Part shown: piece after piece, positions 1 through 52,989 of the stretch | How the letters are laid out: the number at the start of each line of letters is the position of its first letter | Numbering within the stretch: the first letter of the stretch is position 1 | IMG/VR virus record: IMGVR_UViG_3300049432_000174 | Location: 1 to 54,696 of that record | From: a virus | DNA: 54,696 nucleotides | Reading direction: 5' to 3' (one strand) | Translations under genes and position numbers: made by a program | The notes under the pieces: generated by a model | Database searches by the model: none | What the model saw: the letters and a program-made list of their open reading frames with translations, nothing else | What the model was told of the DNA's origin: nothing

Positions 1-94
1 GGCCCTCCTCGAATCTGCGCCAGCGGCGGCCTTCGCAATCAACCACTACCGACCCGACGGGAGGCTCGGGATCGGTGGACGAGAGCTTCGTCAT
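1..94 (-). CDS. Partial small protein, N-terminus only
   Basis: The gene starts at the ATG at 94 and runs off the left edge, so only about 31 residues are visible, beginning MTKLSSTDPEPPVG and rich in Arg/Trp (RRWRRFEEGR). The visible part is identical to the 67-aa gene at 52753-52956 because bases 1-127 duplicate 52863-52989. The ATG overlaps the stop of the upstream gene as ATGA. Function is unknown. The real C-terminus may differ from that of its copy. Confidence 0.6.
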   Translation of the reverse strand, partial: MTKLSSTDPEPPVGSVVVDCEGRRWRRFEEG

Positions 95-127
95 GGCTCC
101 AGTGTCCCAGCGTCACCCGAACCGTCG
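1..127. repeat. 127-bp direct repeat, left copy
   Basis: Bases 1-127 are identical to 52863-52989 in the same orientation. The block covers the 5' part of the MTKLSS gene and the last codons of the gene upstream of it. Homology stops inside the recurrent gene-end element: this copy continues ATCAG where the other continues TTGAG. It begins at the first base of the window. A length of 127 also equals a common assembler k-mer size, so the left edge could be an assembly-graph breakpoint (inference). Confidence 0.95.
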
Positions 128-4459: not shown

Positions 4460-4600
4460 TCAGCCTCCTTCGGTCATGGTGGTGATCTCGATGTCGATGC
4501 GGGCGCCGTGGTGGGCGTCGGCGTGTCGTTCGGCGGCGGCCCAGCTGGCCGACACCTCGCCGCAGGTGTGGCACCGGTACGTGTGCGCTGTGCGGGTCAC
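4460..4600 (-). CDS. C2H2 zinc-finger peptide
   Basis: 46 aa from the GTG at 4600 (GTGA overlap with the upstream stop). Residues C10-x2-C13-x12-H26-x3-H30 give a classic C2H2 finger (YRCHTCGEVS...ERHADAHH). It probably binds zinc and perhaps nucleic acid. It is immediately upstream of the 203-aa protein with an AAGGAGG site inside its own 3' end. Confidence 0.6.
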   Translation of the reverse strand: MTRTAHTYRCHTCGEVSASWAAAERHADAHHGARIDIEITTMTEGG

Positions 4601-5121
4601 GGTTGGAGGTCCCGGTCGATGCGCAGGTCGGGGAGGCTCCCGCCGGTCGGTCCAGCCGGGAGCGCGGCGTGGACCGGCGGGCCGGCGATGGCGTGGCGGC
4701 GGGCCCGTTCGGCGAGCGCCGGGTAGATCTTCAGGAAGTGGGCCCGGGTGATCGCCTCGTCGCCGGCGCAGACGTCCTGCCAGGTGCCGAGCGACTGGAC
4801 GGCCCGGAGGATGAGCGGGTCGGAGAAGTCCCCTTCGGTCGGTGGGGTCATCCAGCCGAGGCGGTGCACGACCCGGTGCACCTCACCCCACGCCTCGCCG
4901 GCGTCGGGCAGCGCCGGGGCGCAGACCGTCTCCCGGAACTCGGCGACGGACGGGAGCCACTTCGCCGTGCGGGCGAGCCGGACCGCGGCGTCGCGGGCAT
5001 CGGCGAAGTCGAGGTCGACGATCAGCTCGGCCCGGATCTCGAAGTCGGACTCGGTAAGTTCCCGGCCAGGCGCGGCCGCCGAGAGGATCACCCAGATGCC
5101 GATCGCTTCGTCTCGGGTCAT
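4597..5121 (-). CDS. Replicative helicase loader candidate (G39P-like)
   Basis: 174 aa from the ATG at 5121. The N-terminal helical block ends in KWLPSVAEFRETV, the pattern seen in phage helicase loader/inhibitor proteins of the SPP1 G39P type (family knowledge). It directly follows the replication-initiator gene with an ATGA overlap, the usual place for a loader. Assignment rests on one motif and context, so a different replisome role is possible. Confidence 0.45.
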   Translation of the reverse strand: MTRDEAIGIWVILSAAAPGRELTESDFEIRAELIVDLDFADARDAAVRLARTAKWLPSVAEFRETVCAPALPDAGEAWGEVHRVVHRLGWMTPPTEGDFSDPLILRAVQSLGTWQDVCAGDEAITRAHFLKIYPALAERARRHAIAGPPVHAALPAGPTGGSLPDLRIDRDLQP

Positions 5122-5951
5122 CGTCGTCTCCCGTCCTGGATCATCCGCAGCCCCGTCTCCGACGAGGAATGCCCCCCGCCCCGCTGGCGGGGCTGGCTGA
5201 TGCTCACCGCCGCGGTGAGGCCGTTGCCGGTCCACGTGACCGGCCCGGCCCGGATGGCCCGGGCCAGGTCGCCTTCGGCCATGCCGGCCCGGAGCGCCTC
5301 TTCGAGCCGGGCCATCACGGCCGGGAACCGCCCTCGAGTCACAGGCTTCACAGGCTGCTCGAACGCGAGCACGGCCAGGCGGTGCGCGGCGCCTTTGACG
5401 GGGTCGGTTTCCGTGACCTTCGACGAGCCGTTTCCGGTGGGCCCCGTCATCGCGGCGTCAGCCGCGAACAAACCGTTCTCTAAAACCGTAGATCTAATAC
5501 AAGGCGCGATCGGCGATTGAGGTCTCACTGGTGAGACCTTTCCCTGTCGTGGATGAGACCTTATTGGCCCCGTTGAGGTCTCATCAGTGAGACCTATTGG
5601 ACCCCCATTAAGGTCTCGTGGTGAGACCTTTTCTTCTCGGTGGTTAAGGTCTCGTGGTGAGACCTCGCTGGGGGTCCAGGACGGGTCACGCACACCGGGG
5701 ATCCGGAACACCGTGAACAGGCCCGGGCGTCGGCCCTTTTCGACAACGACCCAACCTTCCTGACGCAGACGGACCAACGCCCGGAACACCGACGCCCGGG
5801 AGTAGAGCGAGCTCTCCATCATCGACTGGAGGCCTGGATGGGAATGTTCCCCGTCCCGGTTGGCGGCGGCGGCGATGACGAGCAGGACCGACCGCATCGC
5901 CTTGTCGGGCGGCCCGTGCCGGAGCACCCAACCGGCGGCGATGCCGCTCAC
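5118..5951 (-). CDS. Winged-helix replication initiator carrying the origin
   Basis: 277 aa from the GTG at 5951, preceded by GGTGGGGGAGCG; a GTG at 6056 could extend it. The N-terminal winged helix-turn-helix covers about residues 5-95 (SGIAAGWVLRHGPPDKAMR; LVRLRQEGWVVVEKGRRPG). A low-complexity middle is encoded by palindromic repeats (EKVSPRDLN occurs in repeats), and the C-terminal helical domain may contact the loader. The arrangement, with iterons inside the initiator gene, resembles lambda O. Confidence 0.7.
   Translation of the reverse strand: MSGIAAGWVLRHGPPDKAMRSVLLVIAAAANRDGEHSHPGLQSMMESSLYSRASVFRALVRLRQEGWVVVEKGRRPGLFTVFRIPGVRDPSWTPSEVSPRDLNHREEKVSPRDLNGGPIGLTDETSTGPIRSHPRQGKVSPVRPQSPIAPCIRSTVLENGLFAADAAMTGPTGNGSSKVTETDPVKGAAHRLAVLAFEQPVKPVTRGRFPAVMARLEEALRAGMAEGDLARAIRAGPVTWTGNGLTAAVSISQPRQRGGGHSSSETGLRMIQDGRRR
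5470..5665. other. Putative replication origin: iterons plus AT-rich stretch
   Basis: Four AGGTCTC...GAGACCT palindromes lie at 5520-5539, 5576-5595, 5611-5629 and 5647-5665, with a half site TGAGACCT at 5554-5561. Spacing is about 28, 28, 35 and 36 bp. Next to them, 5470-5503 is the most AT-rich stretch of the neighbourhood (TCTAAAACCGTAGATC). All of it lies inside the winged-helix initiator gene, as in lambdoid origins. Origin function is inferred. Confidence 0.65.
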
Positions 5952-6057
5952 CGCTCCCCCACCTGGACGTGCCGATACCGGGAGGGGCCGGGTCCGTAGG
6001 ATGCACTTCCCCGAGCATCTCGTTTTCCGGCCCCCTCCCGGGATCGACACGTCCACG

Positions 6058-6345: not shown

Positions 6346-7155
6346 CTAGAACGGCTCGGTTCCGGGGGCGTCGAACGTCTCCCCCGCCGGCGGCGGGGCC
6401 GGCGCTGCGTCGCGGAACACTTCGCCGCTGGCCGGGTCGAACACCTCGCCGTCGGCGGTGACGTGCACCACCTGCTCGTCCTGCTCGATGGCCCGGGCCA
6501 CCTCGGCGGTCAGCGGCAGGAACGGCGCCATGATCCGGATCGCCGTCTTGCGGGCCATCGACGAGTAGTCGTTCTTCCACGCCGGGCTGTCCGGGCTCTT
6601 ACTCCGGGCCCGGTGTTCGTCCACCTCGTCGGGGCCGATCACCTCGAGGTAGTGGCCGCCACCCTTATAGCGGGCCAGGCCATACCACGTGTACGGCTTG
6701 CCCCGCTTCGACGTCGTCAACGGCCGGTGATGGAGAACGTCGCCGTCGAGGCCGTAGCCGTAGTTGAACTCGTCGCCTTCGCGGACCTCCCGGGCGAAGA
6801 TCGCCGCGACGTTCGGCGACCGGTACGCCAACTGGATCATGCCCTTGTAGCCGAGCACGAACGTCGCCTCGTACTGGCCGCTCCTCCCGTCCTTGAACGG
6901 CAGGAGATAGCCATGGCCGAGGGTCTTGCCCGGCTCCAGACCGAGCTGCGCCATCTGCATCACCGCCCCGAGCAGACTGGCGGTCGTGCACTCCATCAAC
7001 CGGGGGACGGTTCGCAGCTCCGTCATCACCAGCCGCAGGAACCGGTCCACGTTCAGCTGCGCCGGCAACGCCCGGGCCAGCTGGCCCTGCTGCCGCTGGA
7101 TCAGGTCCTTCACCCGGTCATGCTGCGACACGCTCCGCTCAACATCGGTACCCAT
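6346..7155 (-). CDS. recT: RecT-family single-strand annealing protein
   Basis: 269 aa. LMECTTASLLGAVMQMAQLGLEPG, GHGYLLPFKDG and ATFVLGYKGMIQLAYRS are core RecT motifs. SSMARKTAIRIMAPFLPLT near residue 200 is the conserved C-terminal part, followed by a Pro/Ala-rich acidic tail. RecT proteins anneal complementary single strands in phage recombination. No RecE-type nuclease lies beside it; the DnaQ-like exonuclease at 9.2-9.8 kb is the nearest nuclease. Confidence 0.93.
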   Translation of the reverse strand: MGTDVERSVSQHDRVKDLIQRQQGQLARALPAQLNVDRFLRLVMTELRTVPRLMECTTASLLGAVMQMAQLGLEPGKTLGHGYLLPFKDGRSGQYEATFVLGYKGMIQLAYRSPNVAAIFAREVREGDEFNYGYGLDGDVLHHRPLTTSKRGKPYTWYGLARYKGGGHYLEVIGPDEVDEHRARSKSPDSPAWKNDYSSMARKTAIRIMAPFLPLTAEVARAIEQDEQVVHVTADGEVFDPASGEVFRDAAPAPPPAGETFDAPGTEPF

Positions 7156-11984: not shown

Positions 11985-14450
11985 TCACCCGAGTGCCTCA
12001 CTGGGGCCCACGTCGTCGATGGGGACGACGTCGAAGAGGGTGGGGACCTCACCGTCGGATTCGGCGGTGGTGAGGAACCGGCGGGCGGTGTCGAAGTAGG
12101 AGCGTTTCAGTTCGATGCCGTAGAACCGGCGTCCCCAGCGCAGGGACTCGACGCCTTCGGAGCCGATCCCGGCGAAGGGGGAGAACACGGTTTCGTCGCG
12201 GTTGGTCCACAGCCGGACGCACCGTTCGATCAGGCCGAGCTGGAGGGGGCAGATGTGACGCTCGTCGTCGTGTTCTTTGCCGAGCGCGGCGTTGAGGACA
12301 TCGGTGGCGCGGATGTCGTACCAGATGTGGTGCGCCCAGGAGATCCACTCGACATTGGAGATGTCGTCGGCGTGGACCTTCGCCGCCGCCTCGCCGGGCT
12401 TGCGGAAGATCAGCAGGCACTCGGACGCCTGCGGGTGCGAATCCAGCGCGTTGCGTTTCAGGGTGACGAAGAGGAGGTTGGCGTCTTTGGTGCGGGTCGC
12501 CTGGACCTGCGGGTCTTTGTCGATGGCGATGCGGGCGTGGTAGCGGAACCCGGCCCGTTCCATCCCGGCCCGGAGGTCGGACGGGTAGTCGTAGGTGTGG
12601 CGGTAGCCGTGGGCCCCGGCGAAGCGGATGACATCCATGCAGTGGACCGCCACGACACGCCCGGCCTTCATGATCCGGAACAGTTCGGGGGCGAAGAATT
12701 CCCATTGGAGGCGGTACTCGTCGTCGGAGCGGACGTTGCCCATGTCGGCCGCTTCGCTCGAGTAGGTGAACAGGTTGGCGAACGGGGGGGAGAACACGGC
12801 GAGGTCCATCGACTCGGCCGCCATGGTCGGCATGTGAGCCACGGCGTCCCCCAGGACGAGGGTCCAACGGTCGGTGCCGTCCCGGTCGAGCTCGACCTGC
12901 GGCTCGGTCATCAACGACTTCCTCTCGGTCGAATCCCGGGGGCGGAGCACCTCGATGTACGCCTGTTCCTGGCGGCCGGCGTCGGCTTCCCAGGTGGCCT
13001 GCTTGGCCAGCACGTTGCGGAGCATCGGCTCGTCGAGTTCGGTCAGCGGGACGTAGACGATCACCGGGCGGGTCTGGCCGTAGCGGTGCGACCGTCGGAT
13101 CGCCTGGTAGAACCGCTCGAACGAATCCGACATTGAGCTGAAGATCTGGATCCGGCAGGCCTGCAGGTTGAGGCCGTGGCCGAGCATGCTGGCCTTGCAG
13201 ATCAGGACCCGGGGCCCGTCACCGGCCCGGCGGAAGGCGTCGATCAGATCGGTGCGGCGCGCCTGCGGGGTCTTCCCCGAGATGACGACGGCGTCGGGGA
13301 TGAGCCGGCCGAGCTGGGTGCCTTCCTCGTCGAACGTGACCCACACGATGACCTGCTCGTCGCCATGGTCGCCGTTGACCAGGCCGGCGATGTCGGCCGG
13401 CTTGCGGGCCGGGAACCGGCGGATCTCCGTGCCGTCGAGTTCGAAGCCGTGGGCGATCTGCATGACCTTGGTGCGCGACGTGATCCCGCCGGGGGTGGCG
13501 CCGAGCAGGGACGGCTGGTCGCCCCGTTCCCACCGCCGGGCCGCGGCCCGCTGGGCGTCGGTCAGGTCGACGCGGGGGTAGCGCATCTCCAGCTTCGGGA
13601 GCGCCTGGCGGTTGTCGGCGAAGTGGTAGGCGGCCGGGCTGCGCATGAACACCGACCACGAGGCGAGGTGGCGGTAGAAGGCCTTCTCGCCGTGGTGTTT
13701 CAGCTGCCAGTTCCCGTCTCGGTTGACGAAGAACATGGCCAGGAACTCGCGGGTGGAACGCACCACTTCGAGGAAGTAGGCGTGCTCGGCGTACTCGAGG
13801 CGGTCGTTCGGGGCGGGAGTGGCTGAGCAGCACAGCTTCCACCGCACCCCCCGGAAGGCGTTGACGAGGCTGGTGCGGCGCACCCCCATGCTGGCCTTGA
13901 GGACCGAGCTCTCGTCGATCACGACCGCCGAGACGGCCAGCGTGTCGGTCGTCCCGTCGATCTTCTCGTAGTTGGTGATCCCGATCCCGGGGCCGTCGTC
14001 GAGCCACGCCTTCAGAGCGGCGCGGTCGCGCAGGTCGGCGATGGGGAGGGTGTCGCCGTAGAAGCGGGCCGCCTCGCCGATGGTCTGGGGGACGACCTGG
14101 AGGGGGGCGAGGATCAGGGTGCGGCCACCGTGGGCTTCGCCGGCGAGACGGGCCCAGTCCAGCTGGATCGGCGTTTTCCCCAGCCCGCAGTCGGCGAACA
14201 CCGCGAATCGTTCCTTGCGGAGAGCGGCTTCGACGACCCACTTCTGGTAGTCGAACAGGTAGCCGGCCGGTTCCCCGTAGGTCGCGGCGGCCAGTTCGGG
14301 GGCCAGGCCGGCGGAGGCGAGATGCTCGGCGGTCGTCTCGATCACCCGGGGGCCGACGAACCGCCACTCGGGCAGCGCCCGGACCTTCAGCAGATCGGGA
14401 TACGCCTCAAGCGTGACAGCGGCCACGTCCCCGCGACGTTCAATCCTCAC
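11985..14450 (-). CDS. SNF2-like helicase fused to DNA methyltransferase
   Basis: 821 aa from the GTG at 14450 (GTGA overlap). The N-terminal helicase has Walker A ADCGLGKT (86-93), motif II VVIDES (177-181), a C-terminal lobe and motif VI QAIRRSHRYGQ. From about residue 514 an amino-methyltransferase begins: SPPF catalytic motif (554-557) and, near the C-terminus, SAM-binding FSPFAGIGSEG. The order catalytic-then-SAM motif is beta-type, and SPPF suggests N4-cytosine. No restriction nuclease is visible, so an anti-restriction role is plausible. Confidence 0.85.
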   Translation of the reverse strand: MRIERRGDVAAVTLEAYPDLLKVRALPEWRFVGPRVIETTAEHLASAGLAPELAAATYGEPAGYLFDYQKWVVEAALRKERFAVFADCGLGKTPIQLDWARLAGEAHGGRTLILAPLQVVPQTIGEAARFYGDTLPIADLRDRAALKAWLDDGPGIGITNYEKIDGTTDTLAVSAVVIDESSVLKASMGVRRTSLVNAFRGVRWKLCCSATPAPNDRLEYAEHAYFLEVVRSTREFLAMFFVNRDGNWQLKHHGEKAFYRHLASWSVFMRSPAAYHFADNRQALPKLEMRYPRVDLTDAQRAAARRWERGDQPSLLGATPGGITSRTKVMQIAHGFELDGTEIRRFPARKPADIAGLVNGDHGDEQVIVWVTFDEEGTQLGRLIPDAVVISGKTPQARRTDLIDAFRRAGDGPRVLICKASMLGHGLNLQACRIQIFSSMSDSFERFYQAIRRSHRYGQTRPVIVYVPLTELDEPMLRNVLAKQATWEADAGRQEQAYIEVLRPRDSTERKSLMTEPQVELDRDGTDRWTLVLGDAVAHMPTMAAESMDLAVFSPPFANLFTYSSEAADMGNVRSDDEYRLQWEFFAPELFRIMKAGRVVAVHCMDVIRFAGAHGYRHTYDYPSDLRAGMERAGFRYHARIAIDKDPQVQATRTKDANLLFVTLKRNALDSHPQASECLLIFRKPGEAAAKVHADDISNVEWISWAHHIWYDIRATDVLNAALGKEHDDERHICPLQLGLIERCVRLWTNRDETVFSPFAGIGSEGVESLRWGRRFYGIELKRSYFDTARRFLTTAESDGEVPTLFDVVPIDDVGPSEALG

Positions 14451-14596
14451 GACTCCTCGGCTCCGCCTGCAGCGCCGGCGCAGAGGTGGACCCCACCAAC
14501 GGTCATGTCGTCGTGGACGTCGTACCAGTGGTCCTCGCCGGGAAGCACGAGGCGGCGGCACCGAGGGCAGGGCATGGGCTCGGTGAGGCGGATCAC
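14447..14596 (-). CDS. 49-aa Cys/His protein
   Basis: From the GTG at 14596. CPRCRRLVLPGEDHWYDVHDD and HLC give a possible Cys/His metal site. GTGA overlaps with both the XRE gene upstream and the helicase-methyltransferase downstream support coding. Function is unknown. Confidence 0.6.
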   Translation of the reverse strand: MIRLTEPMPCPRCRRLVLPGEDHWYDVHDDMTVGGVHLCAGAAGGAEES

Positions 14597-14847
14597 GCCG
14601 CCTGCCCGTCGTCGTCGCCGTCGTCAACGAGCTCGGCGAGTTCCCGCATGCGGATCCCGAGCACCCGGGACAGCGCTACCAGGGCCTTCAGGGTCGGGAT
14701 GGCCTCTCCCCGTTCCCAGGCGGAAACGGTGGGCTGGGTTACGCCGAGCTCGGCCGCCAGCATCTCCTGGCTGGAGTACCCCTCCTCGATCCGGCGGGCC
14801 CGGATGAGTTCCCCAAGCCGAGTCGAGATGAGTCTCTCCTGCGCCAT
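14593..14847 (-). CDS. XRE-family HTH repressor
   Basis: 84 aa from the ATG at 14847. LGELIRARRIEEGYSSQEMLA, then AELGVTQPTVSAWERGEA, is a typical Cro/CI-type helix-turn-helix. An acidic tail follows (VDDGDDDGQ). It heads the leftward early operon and sits directly behind its own promoter and palindrome (14848-14883), so autoregulation is likely. It may be the lytic repressor, opposed by the divergent gene at 14908. Confidence 0.85.
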   Translation of the reverse strand: MAQERLISTRLGELIRARRIEEGYSSQEMLAAELGVTQPTVSAWERGEAIPTLKALVALSRVLGIRMRELAELVDDGDDDGQAA

Positions 14848-15329: not shown

Positions 15330-16769
15330 TCAGCCGAGGGGGATGACGTCCCCTTCGGGTGCGCCGAGCTCGTCGCCCCAGGCGTCGTCGAGGGTGTCGG
15401 CCAGGCCGTCGTCGTCGCCGGGGATGCAGTGCTCGTACCGCTGATGGAGCATGGTCGTCGAGGTCCCGAAGCGCTTGGCCACGCCGGCGGGGTCCTTCCC
15501 CTTCCGGAGCAGGGTGGAGATCCCGTAGTGCCTCATGTCGTACAACCTCATGTCCTCGGGGACCGGGATCCCGGCGGCGACCGCCTTCTCGACGATGCGG
15601 CTGAAGGCCTGGGATGGGCCGTCGGGGTCGACGGGCTTGAGGCAGTCGGGGGCGGTGGCGAACATGTAGGAGCGGCGGGTGAGCTTCTTCCCGAACATCA
15701 GGGCCAGCTCGTCCTGGGCGCGGAGGTGGTCGTTGACGGCGGCCAGGGCCCGGGCGCCGAGCTTGATGACCCGCCGCCGGCGCTTGTCGGTCTCGCCCCG
15801 GCAGACCTTCCCGTCGACGACGCCGACTCCCTCGAGGGCGAGGCGGCCGGTGGTCCGGTCGAGCTGGCCCCGCTGGAGGGCGGCGACTTCCTGGGGGCGG
15901 GGCCCCGACGCCACGAGCAGGGCGAAGGCCAGGAGCTGCCGCCCGGCCCGGTCGGCAGCCTCACGGTCGACCCGAGCGGGGATGGTGAAGGTGTACGGGG
16001 TGCCGTCCTTGCGTTTGCGGGTGACGGTGTGGGCGGCCCGGACCCGGGTGGTCCCGAGGAGGAACGGGAGGAAGACCTCGAGCTCGTCCGGTTCGGGGGT
16101 GGTCGATTCGCGATCCTCGACGCCGGGGAGCCGGACGGTCGCGCAGGGGTTGGCCGTGAGCGTCGATCCCGGCCGGCGGATCTCCTGGTCGAAGGCCTGG
16201 GCCAGATAGCGCTTCGTCTTCCCGACGGTCCCCGGGTCGAGCGGCTGGCCCTTGTTCTTCCGGGTCTTGCCGCTGCCGACGCTGCCGCTGGCCAGGAGCC
16301 CGTCGAAGAAGGCGGCCAGGGAGAACAGGTCGGGGTCAATGGCGGCCTCTTCGGGCCCGACGGTGCCCCGAACCCGCCAGGCGGCCACGTCGGCCAGCTT
16401 GGGGAGGAGGTACGAGTCGAGGTGGGTGCGGGCCGTGCTGGCGGAGGCGAGGTGGCGGGCGTGGGCTTCGTACCACGCCTCGAGGATGGCCCCGACGGTC
16501 CGCTCCCCCTGGCTGGCCACGACGGGCGGGGCGTGGCCGCCTTCCTTGCGGCGGCGCTTCCTCGTGGCGGCGAGGTCATCGGCCCGGCCGACGAGGGTGG
16601 TGAGAGCGACGATGATCTGCTTCTCGGTGGCGTCGACGGCCAGGGTGTCGGAGAGGTAGTCAGCGCGACCGGTGACCGGGTTGACCCCGGCGTAGGCCCG
16701 CAGCTCGAGCCGGTTCCCTTTGGGGCGGACGTGGCCCCGCTGCTGACGGACCTTGTCGGTAATGTTCAT
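15330..16769 (-). CDS. int: Tyrosine integrase (functional copy)
   Basis: 479 aa from the ATG at 16769. An N-terminal AP2-like/arm-binding part and a core-binding region precede the catalytic domain: Arg I in SGPRPQEVAAL, box II YDMRHYGIST (Arg and His; the usual leading His is Tyr) and the nucleophile in LHQRYEH. Longer than typical phage integrases. attP with arm-like repeats lies just upstream. Integration into tRNA-Val is inferred from attP. Confidence 0.9.
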   Translation of the reverse strand: MNITDKVRQQRGHVRPKGNRLELRAYAGVNPVTGRADYLSDTLAVDATEKQIIVALTTLVGRADDLAATRKRRRKEGGHAPPVVASQGERTVGAILEAWYEAHARHLASASTARTHLDSYLLPKLADVAAWRVRGTVGPEEAAIDPDLFSLAAFFDGLLASGSVGSGKTRKNKGQPLDPGTVGKTKRYLAQAFDQEIRRPGSTLTANPCATVRLPGVEDRESTTPEPDELEVFLPFLLGTTRVRAAHTVTRKRKDGTPYTFTIPARVDREAADRAGRQLLAFALLVASGPRPQEVAALQRGQLDRTTGRLALEGVGVVDGKVCRGETDKRRRRVIKLGARALAAVNDHLRAQDELALMFGKKLTRRSYMFATAPDCLKPVDPDGPSQAFSRIVEKAVAAGIPVPEDMRLYDMRHYGISTLLRKGKDPAGVAKRFGTSTTMLHQRYEHCIPGDDDGLADTLDDAWGDELGAPEGDVIPLG

Positions 16770-30599: not shown

Positions 30600-32327
30600 A
30601 TGCGGATCGCTGTCTACGCCATCGCCCTCGACGAGGCGAAACACGCCGAGCGGTGGGCCGCGTCCACGGTCGATGCCGACTATCGCCTCGTGGCCGACAC
30701 CGGCTCCACCGACGCGACGGCCGAGCTCCTCGAAGCGGCCGGTGTCACCGTCGCCCCGATCTCGGTGCGGCCGTGGCGGTTCGACATGGCCCGCAACGCC
30801 GCCCTGGCGCTCCTCCCCGCCGACATCGACGTGTGCCTGTCCCTCGACCTCGACGAGGTGTGCGAACCCGGCTTCTTCGATGCTGTCCGGGCGGCGTGGG
30901 ATGAGCATGGCGGGTTCGGCCGGGGCCGCCACTGGATCCACACCGGTACGTGGTGGCGCGCCGAACGTTTGCATGCCCGCCACGGCTACCGGTGGGTCGG
31001 TCCCTGCCACGAAGTGACCGTCCCCTACCACGGCGGCCCCGAAGTCGCCGTCGACGTCGAGGCCCGCCTCCGCCATGTGCCCGACGACACGAAGTCCCGC
31101 GGCCAGTACCTCGGGCTCCTCGAGATGTTCTGCGCCGAAGCACCCCACGACCCGAGAGCGTGGACGTACCTGACCCGGGAGCGGTTCTTCCACCAGGACG
31201 CACACGGCGTCCTCGACGCCGCCGCCCGGGCCCTGGCCCTCCCCGGCGGGTGGCCACCGGAACGGGCCGCGATCTGCCGGTGGGCCGCCTGGGCCGACCC
31301 CGACCACGTCGACGAATGGCTCGCCCGGGGGGTCGTCGAAGCACCCGACGAGCAGGAAGGGTGGCACGCCCAGGCGCTCGTGGCCTACGCCCGGGGCGAC
31401 TGGGCCGAGCTCACCCGTTTCTGCGGCCGGGGCCTCGCCTGCCCGCCGGCGGACCACTACCTCGCCGGCCCCGCCTGGCGGCTCCACGACCTCGCCGCCC
31501 TCGCCGCCCACCACCAGGCCGACCAGGCGGCCGCCGTCGCCCACGGCGAAGCAGCCCTGGCCGGCAACCCGGCCGACGGCCGTCTCGCCGCCAACCTCGC
31601 CTTCTACCAGGCCGGTGTCCCCCGCCGCCCGGCACCGGTCGGGGACCACCCGGCCGTGCCCACCTACGTCGTCATCGCCTCGAAGGACCGGCCCACCATG
31701 CTGGCCAACCTCCGCGCCCAGCTCGGCCCCCAGGTCACCGGTATGTTCATCTTCGACAACGGCTACGACGTCGCACCGAAGGATGTCATAGCGGCCCATG
31801 GCTGGCCGCTGCACCGCATGTGGAACGCCGGGCTCAGCCTCGCCGCAGACGCCGGCGGACCCCACAACGTCCTCGTCATCAACGACGACGTCGAGGTCGA
31901 CCCCGACTTCATCGCCCGTCTCGACGCCGCCCTCCGGGTCGACCCCGACCACTGGATCGCCTACCCCAACCACCAAGGCCTCGCCATCGACCACGACGCC
32001 TGCGCCCGCACCACCAGTGACGAGATGGCCGGCCAGACGATCTCTGGGTGGGCCATGATGCTGCGAGGCGAGGCCGGTCTGCGCTTCGATGAGCGGTTCG
32101 GCTGGTGGTACGGAGATAGCGCCATGGAGCGCGAGGTGCGGGTGGCGGGGAAGCACGTGGTGTGCGCCGGCGGCTGCTTCGCCCGCCACCTAGATCCCTG
32201 CCGGTCCACCTTCACTGACCCGGAGCGGCTGGCCCAAGCGGAGGCGGACGAGGCGCTCTTCGCCGAGCTCTACGGGCTGGACCCGGCGACCCTCTACCTC
32301 GCCCGCGCCCGCCAGGAGGTCCGCTAG
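30600..32327 (+). CDS. Double-domain glycosyltransferase
   Basis: 575 aa. The N-terminal GT-A domain has ADTGSTDAT (33-40) and the acidic motif LDLDE (82-86). A middle Ala/Trp-rich helical region looks TPR-like. From about residue 350 a second GT-A begins, VVIASKDRPTMLANL with VINDDVEVDPDF and GWWYGD. Two transferase domains in one chain suggest sequential sugar addition. It sits between collagen-like proteins and a methyltransferase; virion-protein glycosylation is inferred. Confidence 0.8.
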   Translation: MRIAVYAIALDEAKHAERWAASTVDADYRLVADTGSTDATAELLEAAGVTVAPISVRPWRFDMARNAALALLPADIDVCLSLDLDEVCEPGFFDAVRAAWDEHGGFGRGRHWIHTGTWWRAERLHARHGYRWVGPCHEVTVPYHGGPEVAVDVEARLRHVPDDTKSRGQYLGLLEMFCAEAPHDPRAWTYLTRERFFHQDAHGVLDAAARALALPGGWPPERAAICRWAAWADPDHVDEWLARGVVEAPDEQEGWHAQALVAYARGDWAELTRFCGRGLACPPADHYLAGPAWRLHDLAALAAHHQADQAAAVAHGEAALAGNPADGRLAANLAFYQAGVPRRPAPVGDHPAVPTYVVIASKDRPTMLANLRAQLGPQVTGMFIFDNGYDVAPKDVIAAHGWPLHRMWNAGLSLAADAGGPHNVLVINDDVEVDPDFIARLDAALRVDPDHWIAYPNHQGLAIDHDACARTTSDEMAGQTISGWAMMLRGEAGLRFDERFGWWYGDSAMEREVRVAGKHVVCAGGCFARHLDPCRSTFTDPERLAQAEADEALFAELYGLDPATLYLARARQEVR

Positions 32328-42953: not shown

Positions 42954-43237
42954 TGGTGCGCCTTCTCCTTGACCCGGGGCGAGACGAAGGTCCGGCCCCG
43001 GCTGTAGTGGGGCACCGGGTCGGCGATGAACCGGCCATTGATGTCCTTCGCTCGCACCATGAACGCGTCGGCCTGGTCGACGTGCCAAAAGGCCTCCTGC
43101 AACTCCTCGAGGCAGGCGACGAAGCGGTCCTGCCACTCCAGCGGCATCGACTGAAGCAGGGTCCGGGGAAGGACCTGATAGTTGGCATACGTCAGACCGA
43201 ACCAGAGGTGGACCGCCCCGTCCGGCGCGGAGGTCAC
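42950..43237 (-). CDS. Hypothetical protein downstream of terminase
   Basis: 95 aa from the GTG at 43237 (GTGA overlap with terminase). HLWFGLTYANYQVLPRTLLQ, then EWQDRFVACLEELQEAFWHV and FMVRAKDINGRFIADPVPHY. It is common in actinophage packaging clusters. Role unknown. Confidence 0.55.
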   Translation of the reverse strand: MTSAPDGAVHLWFGLTYANYQVLPRTLLQSMPLEWQDRFVACLEELQEAFWHVDQADAFMVRAKDINGRFIADPVPHYSRGRTFVSPRVKEKAHQ

Positions 43238-45897
43238 GATGCCTCCCCACCGGCCGCCGGCGCCGGCGCCTGTGGCTGGCCGAGGAAGATGGCGAAATCG
43301 GCGGTGCCTTCGTCGTCCATCATCGCCTTCATCGCCAACACGTCGGCCACCACCCCGTCGATCTTGTCCTTCGACCTGGCCTTGTCCGGCTTCACGTTCT
43401 CCCCCGAGTCGTACACCGGCACCACGTTCGTCGCCATCCACCGCAACACCGGGTTGCCGCCGTGGCGGAGCTTCCGCTCGTTGACGAGCCGCTCGTAGTT
43501 CTTCGCCGGCGCCGACAACGCCGCGATGGTCTGCGGATACGGCACCATGCGGATCCCCTCATCCTCGAGTTCCTGGACGACCTTGATGGCGTTCCACCGG
43601 TCGTAACCGACCGCCCGCAGGTCCAGCGCGGCGGCGTCGACGATGATCTGCGCCTTGATCACATCGAAATTCGTGGTCTTCCCCGGTGTCACCGTCAGGT
43701 AGCCGGCCGCCGCCCACATTCGCATCGTCGCCTGCATCTCCCCCCGCCGGGCCAACGCCACCTCCGGCAAGAAGAAGCGGGACAGGACCGTGACGGTGCC
43801 GTCGTCGTGGGGGATGGCGATCTTCCATGCGGCGAAGTCGGCGCTCGACGCGAGGTCGAGGCCTCCCCATGCCGGCGCGCCCGACAAGTCCTCATCGAGG
43901 AACCCGGGGCACCCATCCCACGCCTCCAGGTCCAGCCACACCGCCGTCGTCGGCCGCGACCGGATCCCGAGATGGAGCCGCTTGAACGTCGGGAGGAACG
44001 CCGGGGAACTCTCCGCCTTCAGCGCCTTCGACGCCAGGTAGTTCCGCATCACCGACCGGTCGATCCCCGGGTTCGCCGCCTCCCACGTCGCCTCGGCGAA
44101 CGGGTCGGCGTCATCCGCCGCGGCGAACACCACCCCGTAGACCGAGGGGTCGACGATGATCCCGTCGGCCAGACGCTCGACGTAGCTGCGCTTCTCGTCG
44201 TAGATCGAGGTGCGGTCGTCTTCGTCGGCGGTAGTGATGTAGATGATGAGCGGCTGGCGCCGGCTGCCGGTCGCCGTGTCGACCGCGTCGATCAGGTCGC
44301 GGGTCTTATGCACGTGGACCTCGTCGACGATGGCGCCGTGGACGTTGAGGCCGTGCTGGAGACCGGCGTCGGAGGCCAGCACCTCGAAGAACCCGTTGGT
44401 CTCTCGGTACTCGATGACGTTGCGGTGGACCAGCAGCCGGTCGCGGATGTCTTTGCTGCCGGAGCGGACCATCGCCCGGGCCGGGTCGAACACCTGTCGC
44501 GCCTGACGCTTGGCTCCCGCCAGCGCGTAGACCTCGGCCCCCGGCTCCCGGTCCGCCGAGAGGAGGTACAGGCCGACCCCCGACCCAATCGTCGAGTTGT
44601 GGGTCGGGACGAACGACCGACCGACGAGGTACATGCCGTGGGGGTCGGCGATCTGGATGCACTTCACCGGCACCGACGGGACCGGCTCGACGGACACGAC
44701 CTGGCGGCTGCGCGACCGGGCCCGTCGGGCGACTGGCGGTGGAGCGAGACGTTGCAGCTTGCGGGTCAGGCGGAAGACTGGCCGGTCGGCGTAGGTGGTG
44801 AAGGCGATGTCCCAGACGGGGCCGCAGTCCTTCCCGCTGAGGGTGGCCCGTGTCTCCCGTACGGTTGCCTTGAAGCCGAGGGAGCGCACCAGTTCGGCGA
44901 CGTCCGCCGCCAGGCGCATCGAGGTGCTGGTGTAGATGCACTGGGTGATGTTGTGCTTGACGCCCCTTCGGCTCACGGTGCCGTCGGTGTCCATGAGCCC
45001 CTGAAGGAGAGCTAGCCGCTGCGGCGCCGATGCCCGCAGGTACTCGGTGGGGATGTGCTTCGCTCCGAGCACGCCGAGGTCTCGCAGTTCGGCGAGGAGG
45101 CCGTAGATGCCCCACAGGTAGGAGGCCTTGCGTTTGACGACCCTGTATCCGGCGCCGATGATTTGGTCGATGACCTCTTGGTCAGCCGACGTGATCGAAC
45201 CGCCCGCCGTCGTGCCGTCGCCGAGCCAGGCACCGAGGACGTAGGGGTTAACGACCAGCTTCGCCTCGGGCAGCTCGAGAGCGCCGGCGATGGTCACTGC
45301 GTGGTTCCGGTCGTTGCGGGGCCCGTAGGTGACCGTCTCGGCGAGTTCTCGGGTGGTGTGAAGACCGGTCGCCTCGGTCTGGAGCCCTTGCTTGCGCATC
45401 TGGGTCCGCCAGAGGTGGCCTGCGTCAGCGATGAGCGACTCGCCGTCGGAGAAGGTGACCCGGTAGCACGGCCGGCCCCACATCGTGTTCGTGACGCCAG
45501 CGACCGTGGTGACCCGTCCCTCGTCGGTGAACACCTCGTCGCCAACCTCGAGCGCACCGTGGTTTGTCCACCCATCAGGCGTCGGAACAGGCGTGTCAAA
45601 AGCCAAGGCCTTGGCGTTCTTGCGGGGCATCTCCCACCACGCGTCGCGCACGATCCGGTACCCCTGGGCGTTCTTCCAGCCGAACACCGGGGCGATCAGG
45701 TACTCGATCTGCCAGTCGTCGAGGACGAGGAGGTGACCGCCGAGCTCCCCCTTGATGTGGCGCAGCTGGGCGAAGAACCGCACCACCCGGTCCACCGCCG
45801 CCTCGTCGAACCAGGCACCCGGCACGTCGACCGGCGGCGGCGTCTGGATCAGCGGCCGGCACCCCACCGGCACCACCAGCCCGCCGGCGGCGGTCAC
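43234..45897 (-). CDS. Terminase large subunit interrupted by an intein
   Basis: 887 aa from the GTG at 45897 (GTGA with the small subunit). The extein Walker A is PRKNAK-STIG (91-96 then 435-438), split by the intein exactly before the Ser. Walker B is GAIVDEVHVHK, followed by IYITTADEDD. The nuclease domain begins near GGLDLASSADFAAW. The mature extein is about 549 aa, normal for TerL. Splicing must occur before packaging. Confidence 0.92.
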   Translation of the reverse strand: MTAAGGLVVPVGCRPLIQTPPPVDVPGAWFDEAAVDRVVRFFAQLRHIKGELGGHLLVLDDWQIEYLIAPVFGWKNAQGYRIVRDAWWEMPRKNAKALAFDTPVPTPDGWTNHGALEVGDEVFTDEGRVTTVAGVTNTMWGRPCYRVTFSDGESLIADAGHLWRTQMRKQGLQTEATGLHTTRELAETVTYGPRNDRNHAVTIAGALELPEAKLVVNPYVLGAWLGDGTTAGGSITSADQEVIDQIIGAGYRVVKRKASYLWGIYGLLAELRDLGVLGAKHIPTEYLRASAPQRLALLQGLMDTDGTVSRRGVKHNITQCIYTSTSMRLAADVAELVRSLGFKATVRETRATLSGKDCGPVWDIAFTTYADRPVFRLTRKLQRLAPPPVARRARSRSRQVVSVEPVPSVPVKCIQIADPHGMYLVGRSFVPTHNSTIGSGVGLYLLSADREPGAEVYALAGAKRQARQVFDPARAMVRSGSKDIRDRLLVHRNVIEYRETNGFFEVLASDAGLQHGLNVHGAIVDEVHVHKTRDLIDAVDTATGSRRQPLIIYITTADEDDRTSIYDEKRSYVERLADGIIVDPSVYGVVFAAADDADPFAEATWEAANPGIDRSVMRNYLASKALKAESSPAFLPTFKRLHLGIRSRPTTAVWLDLEAWDGCPGFLDEDLSGAPAWGGLDLASSADFAAWKIAIPHDDGTVTVLSRFFLPEVALARRGEMQATMRMWAAAGYLTVTPGKTTNFDVIKAQIIVDAAALDLRAVGYDRWNAIKVVQELEDEGIRMVPYPQTIAALSAPAKNYERLVNERKLRHGGNPVLRWMATNVVPVYDSGENVKPDKARSKDKIDGVVADVLAMKAMMDDEGTADFAIFLGQPQAPAPAAGGEAS
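44596..45609 (-). other. Class 3-type intein with LAGLIDADG endonuclease in TerL
   Basis: 338 aa (residues 97-434). It starts with Ala instead of Cys (ALAFDTPVPTPDGW) and ends VPTHN before the +1 Ser. Block B has GHLW (Trp), block F has VKCIQIADPHGMYLVG (Cys), and block G has Thr: the W-C-T set that defines class 3 inteins. Endonuclease motifs YVLGAWLGDG and LLQGLMDTDGT are intact. The insertion site is the ATPase P-loop, a usual target. Confidence 0.85.
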
Positions 45898-48114: not shown

Positions 48115-49059
48115 TCACCGGACGAAGCGGTAGACGCGGTCCTTCAACACGAGGGGGGCATCATCAGGTCCCTTCACGTGCGGCGCGATCCACACTGGCC
48201 GGTGTTCCTCGCTGGAGGGGTACCACTGCTGGCGCCAGTGCCCGTCGACTACCCAGCGGCACGACCACTCGGTGTGCTGCCCCTCGGCGGATGGTTCGGT
48301 TTTCGACGGTGCCTGTCGCCGCAGCGTGACGACGCGGATGCCGTCCTCGACGTCGAGGGGAAGCCCGAGACGCTCGGCCCGGCGTCGACGCCCACGATCG
48401 ACGTGCCCGCGGCTGATCGACGCGACCCGCTGCTGGCACAGGATCCAGTAGCTGAGGAGGACGCCGTGAGTCACGCTCTCTACGGCCCCTGGGCTCAGCT
48501 GGCCGAACGGGATTTCCTCGTATCGGGCGGGCACGGGGTCGGGGACATGGACATCACCGGGTTGGCGGACGCGACTGATGTCGTCGTGAAGGCAGACGAA
48601 GGCGCCGACCTCGCCGTTGGCGAGCTCGGTGGTGCTCCATGAGATGGCGATGACGTGCATCCCTGTCGGCGAGGAGGCCGCTACGGGCGCGATGGACTGG
48701 CCCTCGATGAACCAGTCCTTGGCGAAGTAGGCGAAGCCTGATGGTGAAGGAAGGTGGTCCGGGGTGAAGTTGACACCGGGCATGCTCTTGCCGGCGGCGA
48801 GGACGAGGTCGACCATCTCTGGGGCGATCCAGTATGTGGCGCCTCGGAGCCAGCTGTCCTTGAGCAGCCCGATGACGTGTTCGGGCTTCCAGGCGAGATA
48901 GCTGGGCTCCCATGGTCCGTTCTCACCGCCGCCGTGATAGGCCATTTCGAGGCCGAGCTGACTCTCGACGATGTCGTGGCAGGCTCGGCTGTCGGACCAG
49001 CGGATCAGGTCGAGCTGTGCCTCCAGGGCGACCATCCATGGCGGGGTACGCTCAGCCAT
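48115..49059 (-). CDS. Conserved actinobacterial hypothetical protein
   Basis: 314 aa from the ATG at 49059 with AGGAGGT. The C-terminal HRPVWIAPHVKGPDDAPLV, then LKDRVYRFVR resembles a phage/prophage and actinobacterial family of unknown function (from memory). The middle is alpha/beta (MHVIAISWSTTELANGEVGA). It lies next to the broken integrase, so it may be integrated with the lysogeny genes or be a late addition. Confidence 0.6.
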   Translation of the reverse strand: MAERTPPWMVALEAQLDLIRWSDSRACHDIVESQLGLEMAYHGGGENGPWEPSYLAWKPEHVIGLLKDSWLRGATYWIAPEMVDLVLAAGKSMPGVNFTPDHLPSPSGFAYFAKDWFIEGQSIAPVAASSPTGMHVIAISWSTTELANGEVGAFVCLHDDISRVRQPGDVHVPDPVPARYEEIPFGQLSPGAVESVTHGVLLSYWILCQQRVASISRGHVDRGRRRRAERLGLPLDVEDGIRVVTLRRQAPSKTEPSAEGQHTEWSCRWVVDGHWRQQWYPSSEEHRPVWIAPHVKGPDDAPLVLKDRVYRFVR

Positions 49060-49117
49060 TTCGACCTCCTATCCGAGGTTCGGCCAATGCCCGCTGAGCA
49101 GCGTGATGGGGCCCCGG

Positions 49118-50069
49118 CTAGTTGCTGACACCGCCGGTGGCCCCGGCGACGAACGCGGCGAGGATGTAGGTGGGGTGACGATCGAGGTTCTTGCGGTTCC
49201 GGTCGTAGTGGATCGTGGTCCGTGGGTCGGCGTGGCCGGCGAAGAATTGGGCGTCTCGGATGTCGACTCCGGCGTCGAGGACGGCGGTGACGGCGGCGTG
49301 GCGGATGCTGTGCGGGCTGATGCGGTGGTTGATCCCAGCCTTCTTGGCGAGGCGTTTGACGATGCGGTAGGCGGCGCCTCGGTTGAGGCGGCCGCCGTTG
49401 TTGGCGAGGAGGATCGGTCCTTCGCAGCGTTCGCCGATGGCGAGGTCGATGGCTCGGGCGGTGCGGGGCGCGAGGGGGATGAGTTCGTCCCAGCCGCCTT
49501 TGCGGAGCACGGTGACGGTGCGGTGGCCTTTCCCGGTGGCCATGTCCTCGATGTTGGCGTTGCAGGCTTCGCTGACCCGGAGGCCGTTCATGGCCAGGAG
49601 GACGCACAGGGCGTGGTCTCTCGGGGAGGAGAGGCCGGCTTGGACGAGGAACGCGCCGAGCCCGAGGGTGGTCGAGCCCGAGGGTGGTCGAGACGCGGTC
49701 GGCCTTCGGACGCCGGACGTGGGCGGCCGGGTTCTTGACGATCAGGTCCTCTTCGTCGCACCACTTGTAGAAGCAGCAGATGGTGCTGAGGCGGCGGCCG
49801 ATGGTCGGCCGGGCGTAAGGGACGCCCTGCCATTTCCCGGGCCGGTAGAGGCCTTCTTCGAGGCTCCGGACGTACAGCTCGATGTGGGGGCGGCGGGCCT
49901 CGAAGATGGGGATGTCGTGCCGGGCGGCGAACTCGAACCAGCCTCGGAGGTCGATCTTGTAGCCGGTGAGGGTCGTGCCGCTGTAGCCGGCGAGGAACCC
50001 GGCGGCGGCCATGTATGCCGCATCGAACGGGTCGGCAGAGGGTGCTTCGAGCGCGTAGATTTGCGCCAT
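49118..50069 (-). pseudogene. Second tyrosine integrase, frameshifted
   Basis: From the ATG at 50069 (GGAGG upstream). N-terminal SAM-like domain (GFLAGYSGTTLTGYKIDLRG), then RRPKADRVSTTLGL. Here the frame is lost. The second part begins in LLAMNGLRVSEAC (Arg I) and has GHRTVTVLRKGG, HSIRHAAVT, FAGHADPRTT and the Tyr of IHYDR. Removing one 16-bp repeat unit (49658-49689) restores a 311-aa reading frame with all catalytic residues. It is either a pseudogene, phase-variable or an assembly artefact. Confidence 0.8.
49658..49689. repeat. 16-bp tandem duplication in integrase 2
   Basis: GAGCCCGAGGGTGGTC occurs at 49658-49673 and again at 49674-49689 (plus strand). Because 16 is not a multiple of three, it shifts the frame. 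No other tandem duplication of this kind is seen in a coding gene of the window. Confidence 0.95.
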
Positions 50070-50144
50070 GTCGGGACCTCCATGGGGTCTCGGCCGGGCC
50101 CCGGGCTGTCGCAAGCAGCGCCGGGGCCACCTGGGTGGGGCAAC

Positions 50145-52756: not shown

Positions 52757-52956
52757 GATTTGGTCCCGTCGATCAGGAGCACCGGGCCGTAGTTTCCGGC
52801 GACTCTTGTCCATGATTCGGTGTCGTCATCTATGTCGTCGCCGACCTGGGCCCAGGAGCGGCGGCCCTCCTCGAATCTGCGCCAGCGGCGGCCTTCGCAA
52901 TCAACCACTACCGACCCGACGGGAGGCTCGGGATCGGTGGACGAGAGCTTCGTCAT
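52753..52956 (-). CDS. 67-aa protein duplicated at the left edge
   Basis: From the ATG at 52956. Trp/Arg-rich (GRRWRRFEEGRRSWAQVGDD), then TESWTRVAGNYGPVLLIDG. The 5' part is within the 127-bp repeat. Function is unknown. Ends LLIDGTKS. Confidence 0.55.
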   Translation of the reverse strand: MTKLSSTDPEPPVGSVVVDCEGRRWRRFEEGRRSWAQVGDDIDDDTESWTRVAGNYGPVLLIDGTKS

Positions 52957-52989
52957 GGCTCCAGTGTCCCAGCGTCACCCGAACCGTCG
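52863..52989. repeat. 127-bp direct repeat, right copy
   Basis: Identical to 1-127. Encodes the N-terminal part of the MTKLSS gene and GDAGTLEP of the gene upstream. The right homology edge is inside the element (CTCAA here, CTGAT at the left copy). Recombination between the copies would circularise or delete 52,862 bp. Confidence 0.95.

What the first reader, a model, noticed from the sequence alone, without database searches (positions are those of the whole stretch)
5470..5665. Lambda O-like origin inside the initiator gene
Four palindromic AGGTCTC/GAGACCT iterons and one half site, at regular 28-36 bp phasing, next to an AT-rich stretch, lie in the middle of a winged-helix initiator gene whose downstream neighbour looks like a helicase loader. 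This matches the lambdoid layout, with unrelated sequences.
Basis: partly seen in the sequence, partly recalled or inferred. Interest (0 to 1): 0.75.

Follow-up and report, generated by a model that had tools for sequence, protein, structure and literature searches.

The report
Lambda-type replication origin inside initiator gene
A virus of an unknown bacterium carries its probable DNA replication start site, four near-identical palindromes beside an easily melted stretch, inside the gene for the protein expected to bind it, the same layout as in phages lambda and SPP1; it is a sound but ordinary new example of a known design.

Summary
At 5520-5665, inside a minus-strand gene, are four perfect palindromes (AGGTCTC-5/6 nt-GAGACCT) and one half site, far beyond chance. 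The gene (GTG at 5951 to stop at 5118) encodes a predicted winged-helix-like domain, a disordered linker and a C-terminal helical domain. The palindromes, and the least stable 40 bp of the contig apart from its extreme end (5466-5505), code only for the linker. The repeats lie in all three codon phases, so selection is on DNA. The next gene overlaps by ATGA and encodes a lambda P-like helicase loader. Lambda, analysed side by side, has almost the same layout: iterons at nt 349-433 of O and the AT block at 436-474; here 287-432 and 447-485. Six other initiator genes also carry linker repeats, of unrelated sequence. Best explanation: an initiator dimer binds each palindrome, the adjacent AT stretch melts, and the P-like loader delivers host DnaB. 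This is a new member of the known lambda/SPP1 in-gene origin kind; its one oddity is 34-36 bp iteron spacing instead of 20-24. Binding and replication start are untested.

The parts
5118..5951 (-). initiator gene, GTG start at 5951 with GGGGAG just upstream, stop TGA at 5120-5118; 277 aa: winged-helix-like domain (to about aa 86), disordered linker (about aa 88-181), C-terminal helical domain (aa 184-252)
   Evidence: HTH_36 match below cut-off; PHROG replication initiation families 6643 and 1032, E about 1e-5; AlphaFold model, low confidence; start chosen by alignment with homologue L003
5647..5665 (-). iteron 1, AGGTCTCACCACGAGACCT (gene nt 287-305)
5611..5629 (-). iteron 2, AGGTCTCACCACGAGACCT (gene nt 323-341)
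5576..5595 (-). iteron 3, AGGTCTCACTGATGAGACCT (gene nt 357-376)
5555..5561 (-). half site AGGTCTC (gene nt 391-397), 22 bp from the same arm of iteron 4
5520..5539 (-). iteron 4, nearest the AT-rich stretch, AGGTCTCACCAGTGAGACCT (gene nt 413-432)
5466..5505 (.). AT-rich stretch, presumed DNA unwinding element (about 60% AT in a 69% GC genome)
   Evidence: composition and nearest-neighbour stability scans
4597..5121 (-). P-like helicase loader gene, start codon overlapping the initiator stop (ATGA)
   Evidence: PHROG 109 P-like helicase loader E 1.6e-4; Foldseek ranks 1-4 all lambda P chains, E 0.04-1.9
6346..7155 (-). RecT-type annealing protein, upstream neighbour in the replication/recombination module
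   Evidence: PF03837 E 8e-43

Best explanation
The segment 5466-5665 is the phage's replication origin, placed in the linker-coding part of its own initiator gene. Dimers of the initiator bind the four palindromes through the N-terminal winged-helix domain, and a fifth, weaker contact is made at the half site. The array forms a complex comparable to the lambda O-some and the AT-rich stretch at 5466-5505 melts. The C-terminal domain recruits the P-like loader encoded by the next gene, which brings the host DnaB helicase. Shown here: the sites, their DNA-level (not protein-level) conservation, the AT-rich flank, the domain layout and the loader relationship. Inferred: binding, melting, helicase delivery and that replication starts here.
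For: Palindrome cluster beyond chance and in all three codon phases. AT-rich flank on the same side as in lambda, with the same AT excess over its gene, 0.28 in both. The linker encoded by this DNA is the unstructured segment of the model, residues 88-181. Initiator matches to PHROG replication initiation families; its homologue in L003 matches the O-like family phrog_391, which lambda O also matches. Loader: phrog_109, lambda P's own family, and the four best PDB structure matches are all lambda P. ATGA overlap of the two genes as for lambda O/P. Repeats in the same linker position in L003, L004, L005/L006, L009, Moorella phage MCACPph1 and Faecalibacterium phage Lagaffe, each of different sequence.
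Against: No functional data. No DnaB gene was recognised among the proteins scanned, so a host helicase is assumed. No clear GC-skew switch at 5.5 kb. Direct profile comparison of the initiator and loader alignments with single lambda O and P sequences was not significant. Foldseek E-values for lambda P are weak (best 0.04). The initiator model has low confidence (mean pLDDT 50). The Moorella repeats are weak (10/300 codon shuffles reach them).
Confidence: 0.87

Rival explanations
1. The palindromes are operators: the initiator, or another phage regulator, binds them to shut off its own operon, and replication starts elsewhere.
For: Palindromic sites with a winged-helix protein are also the form of repressor operators; Foldseek weakly lists MarR/Fur-like regulators for the initiator model.
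Against: Sites lie about 290-430 nt inside the gene, not at its promoter; an AT-rich stretch and a P-like loader gene adjoin them; relatives keep repeats in the same linker although the sequences are unrelated. Autoregulation could still be a second role.
Confidence: 0.06
2. The repeats encode a repetitive protein linker and the DNA palindromes are a by-product.
For: Two repeats read as EVSPRDLN/KVSPRDLN.
Against: The repeats fall in all three codon phases and give different peptides; codon-preserving shuffles never match the repeat density.
Confidence: 0.02
3. The palindromes act as RNA hairpins (attenuators or processing sites) in the early transcript.
For: The segment has the lowest minus-strand folding z-score of the 120-nt windows scanned (-6.6).
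Against: Hairpins follow automatically from palindromes; no U-tract for termination; no Rfam match; identical arm sequence across sites is not needed for hairpins, whereas it is for a binding protein.
Confidence: 0.03
4. A centromere-like (parS) or other segregation site.
For: Clustered palindromes are typical of such sites.
Against: No ParA/ParB family turned up among the proteins scanned, though not every small gene was scanned; the phage encodes integrases, so it need not be a plasmid prophage.
Confidence: 0.02

Closest known systems
phage lambda ori within gene O, with O initiator and P helicase loader (PMC6022878, PMC7466680)
   Same: Four palindromic iterons then an AT-rich block in the middle of the initiator gene; same position in the gene, same order, sites in different codon phases; next gene a P-family loader overlapping by ATGA
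   Different: Iteron sequence unrelated; dyad spacing 34-36 bp (plus one half site at 22) against 20-24; palindromes of 19-20 bp against 18 bp; no significant direct sequence similarity between the initiator and lambda O
Bacillus phage SPP1 oriL within gene 38, with gp38, gp39, gp40 (PMC6316719)
   Same: Origin of repeats plus an AT-rich unwinding element inside the initiator gene, in a system with a dedicated helicase loader
   Different: SPP1 repeats are described as direct repeats; SPP1 has a second origin oriR, none found here; SPP1 encodes its own DnaB-type helicase, none recognised here; SPP1 was not in the collection under the accession tried, so not compared directly
winged-helix-type phage initiators with linker repeats in L003, L004, L005, L006, L009, Moorella phage MCACPph1 and Faecalibacterium phage Lagaffe
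   Same: Repeats in the linker-coding DNA of the initiator gene; in L004-L006, MCACPph1 and Lagaffe a gene related to the window's loader follows, in L003 a candidate one
   Different: Repeat sequences all different; L003-L006 and L009 have 22-23 bp spacing; L009 carries another C-terminal domain and a helicase-like next gene

Membership tests
lambda-type in-gene phage origin | several copies of a specific, palindromic repeat inside the initiator gene | tested here: met
   four full sites and one half site
lambda-type in-gene phage origin | AT-rich unwinding stretch adjoining the iterons | tested here: met
   presence of the AT-rich stretch: gene nt 447-485, lambda 436-474; melting itself not testable
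lambda-type in-gene phage origin | gene encodes a DNA-binding initiator with N-terminal binding domain, linker over the origin, C-terminal domain | tested here: met
   model and PHROG matches; confidence of the model is low
lambda-type in-gene phage origin | adjacent helicase-loader gene | tested here: met
   phrog_109, Foldseek lambda P
lambda-type in-gene phage origin | initiator binds the iterons and replication starts there | not testable with these tools
   needs binding and replication assays
lambda O protein family by sequence | significant sequence match to lambda O or its families | tested here: inconclusive
   phrog_391 E 0.094 for the window protein, 6e-6 for its homologue L003; direct hhalign with lambda O not significant
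lambda P-like helicase loaders | profile or fold match to lambda P | tested here: met
   phrog_109 E 1.6e-4 over residues 51-160; Foldseek top four hits lambda P, best E 0.043, probability 1.00; direct hhalign with one lambda P sequence not significant

The most novel reading that the evidence does not exclude
The origin is built to a different geometry from lambda: palindromic sites about one helical turn further apart (34-36 bp), not on one DNA face, with centres of 5 or 6 nt, so that the initiator array wraps or loops DNA differently from the lambda O-some, with the half site at 22 bp acting as a distinct contact next to the melting side.
Probability: 0.3. Interest if true: 0.4.

Novelty: new member of a known kind. 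Interest (0 to 1): 0.32.

Why it matters
It extends the lambda/SPP1 plan of an origin nested in its initiator gene to a 69% GC phage whose initiator has no match in the phage collection, and shows that the plan is kept while iteron sequences turn over completely. That makes initiator-iteron specificity testable across unrelated phages and gives a simple rule for locating phage origins: look for repeats in the DNA that codes for the linker of a winged-helix initiator next to a loader gene.

Tried and rejected
A pattern scan of viral contigs for the iteron array found only L007, a chance match in tail genes. The genome-contig scan gave only L010, a spurious reading frame opposite a glycosidase-type gene, so no bacterial host or prophage relative was identified. 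RecT relatives L011 and L012 showed no comparable palindromic array. PDB sequence searches with initiator and loader gave nothing. Foldseek on the initiator gave only weak winged-helix regulators, including the N-terminal domain of the initiator RctB at rank 21. A hairpin upstream of the initiator is not shared by L003, so it was not made part of the origin. One search used a wrong spacer length and is superseded.

Full report
OBSERVATION. The window is a virus record of 54,696 bases, about 69% GC, with terminase, portal, head protease, major head, tail, endolysin and integrase genes: a temperate tailed phage. At 5520-5665 there are four perfect palindromes with AGGTCTC/GAGACCT arms and one half site. 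Nine of 13 copies of the heptamer in the window are in these 146 bp; the Poisson estimate for such clustering is about 1e-12 after correction for all positions and all heptamers. No second array exists in the contig.

THE GENE. All of this lies on the minus strand in an ORF 6056-5118. Homologue L003 (35% identity) and a GGGGAG motif point to the GTG at 5951 as start, giving 277 aa. Matches: HTH_36 (weak, below cut-off) and PHROG 6643 and 1032, replication initiation proteins (E about 1e-5). The predicted structure has an N-terminal helical domain with a two-strand wing (to residue 83), no confident structure at residues 88-181, and a C-terminal helical domain at 184-252; overall confidence is low, mean pLDDT 50. 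Residues 88-181 correspond to DNA 5690-5409, so the iterons and the AT stretch both fall entirely in linker-coding DNA.

DNA-LEVEL SELECTION. The AGGTCTC arms lie in codon phases 1, 1, 2, 0 and 1, so the repeated unit is the DNA and not the peptide. Shuffling synonymous codons while keeping the protein never reached the observed repeat density in 300 trials.

AT-RICH STRETCH. 5466-5505 is the least stable 40 bp of the contig apart from its extreme 3' end, and 5466-5565 is the least stable 100 bp of all.

LOADER. The next gene starts at the ATG of an ATGA overlap (4597-5121; sequence). It matches phrog_109, P-like helicase loader, at E 1.6e-4, the family to which lambda P itself belongs. The structure model (mean pLDDT 64) has as its four best matches in the PDB four chains of lambda P in complex with DnaB (entries 9oa1 and 9oa2; best E 0.043, probability 1.00). 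Direct hhalign with one lambda P sequence is not significant, so the relation is distant.

SIDE BY SIDE WITH LAMBDA. Lambda O is 900 nt with iterons at nt 349-433 in phases 0, 2, 2, 1 and its most AT-rich 39 bp at 436-474; here the gene is 834 nt with iterons at 287-432 and the most AT-rich 39 bp at 447-485; the AT excess over the gene is 0.28 in both. O and P also overlap by 4 bp. [quoted passage not shown] PMC7466680 describes the same layout in related phages with six iterons. SPP1 oriL likewise lies within gene 38, in a system with the helicase loader gp39 (PMC6316719).

RELATIVES. Initiators in L003, L004, L005 (L006 is nearly the same), L009, Moorella phage MCACPph1 (L013) and Faecalibacterium phage Lagaffe (L014) all carry repeats in the linker part: GGTCGAAAAACGAATC in L003; ACCCCAAAATGG in L004; GGTCAAAATGACC palindromes in L005; GGGTCCCTCATGGTGAGGGA palindromes in L009; TGCCGCAAAATGCCA in L013; AGAGTAGACC in L014. 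Codon shuffles never reach the observed density in six of the seven genes tested and do so in 10/300 for L013. In L003, L004 and L005 the AT maximum of the gene is at or just after the repeats. L003-L006 and L009 have 22-23 bp spacing; the window's 34-36 bp is the exception. L004-L006 also have a loader related to the window's, and L005 and L006 a RecT-like ORF upstream (judged by eye).

MECHANISM. Best-supported: an initiator dimer on each palindrome, an O-some-like complex, melting of the AT stretch, loading of host DnaB by the P-like protein. Sites, layout and relationships are shown; binding, melting and start of replication are inferred from the lambda and SPP1 precedents.

VERDICT. It is a new member of the lambda/SPP1 in-gene origin kind, with divergent iterons and wider spacing.

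Noticed in passing
window 43234-45897 (-): The 887-aa terminase large subunit appears to be interrupted by an insertion (roughly residues 100-434) with LAGLIDADG homing endonuclease matches, probably an intein. This also explains its matches to 'DNA primase' in PHROGs.
   Followed up: partly
window 1-127 and 52863-52989: The first 127 bases recur exactly at 52863-52989, then the sequences diverge. 127 is a common assembler k-mer length, so the genome may close as a circle of 52,862 bp with the last 1.7 kb an alternative branch.
   Followed up: partly
window 5958-6055: Long hairpin (RNA fold -71 kcal/mol, z -5) between the preceding gene and the initiator's ribosome-binding site; no U-tract; not present upstream of the L003 homologue.
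   Followed up: partly
window 5174-5467: Five further, mutually unrelated short palindromes in the 3' half of the initiator gene; the ORF has nine with arms of 7 or more, codon shuffles reached at most four in 3000 trials.
   Followed up: partly
window 11985-14627 (-): Helicase (DEAD/Helicase_C) fused to an N6/N4 DNA methyltransferase in one 880-aa ORF.
   Followed up: no
window 15330-16769 and 49005-50114 (-): Two tyrosine integrase-like genes in one phage contig.
   Followed up: no
window 5521-5664: Each iteron arm contains GGTCTC (a BsaI-type site): nine within 150 bp, while the window as a whole has fewer such sites than expected (40 against 56.5).
   Followed up: no
window 30600-32327 (+): Glycosyltransferase-like gene on the opposite strand within the structural region.
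   Followed up: no
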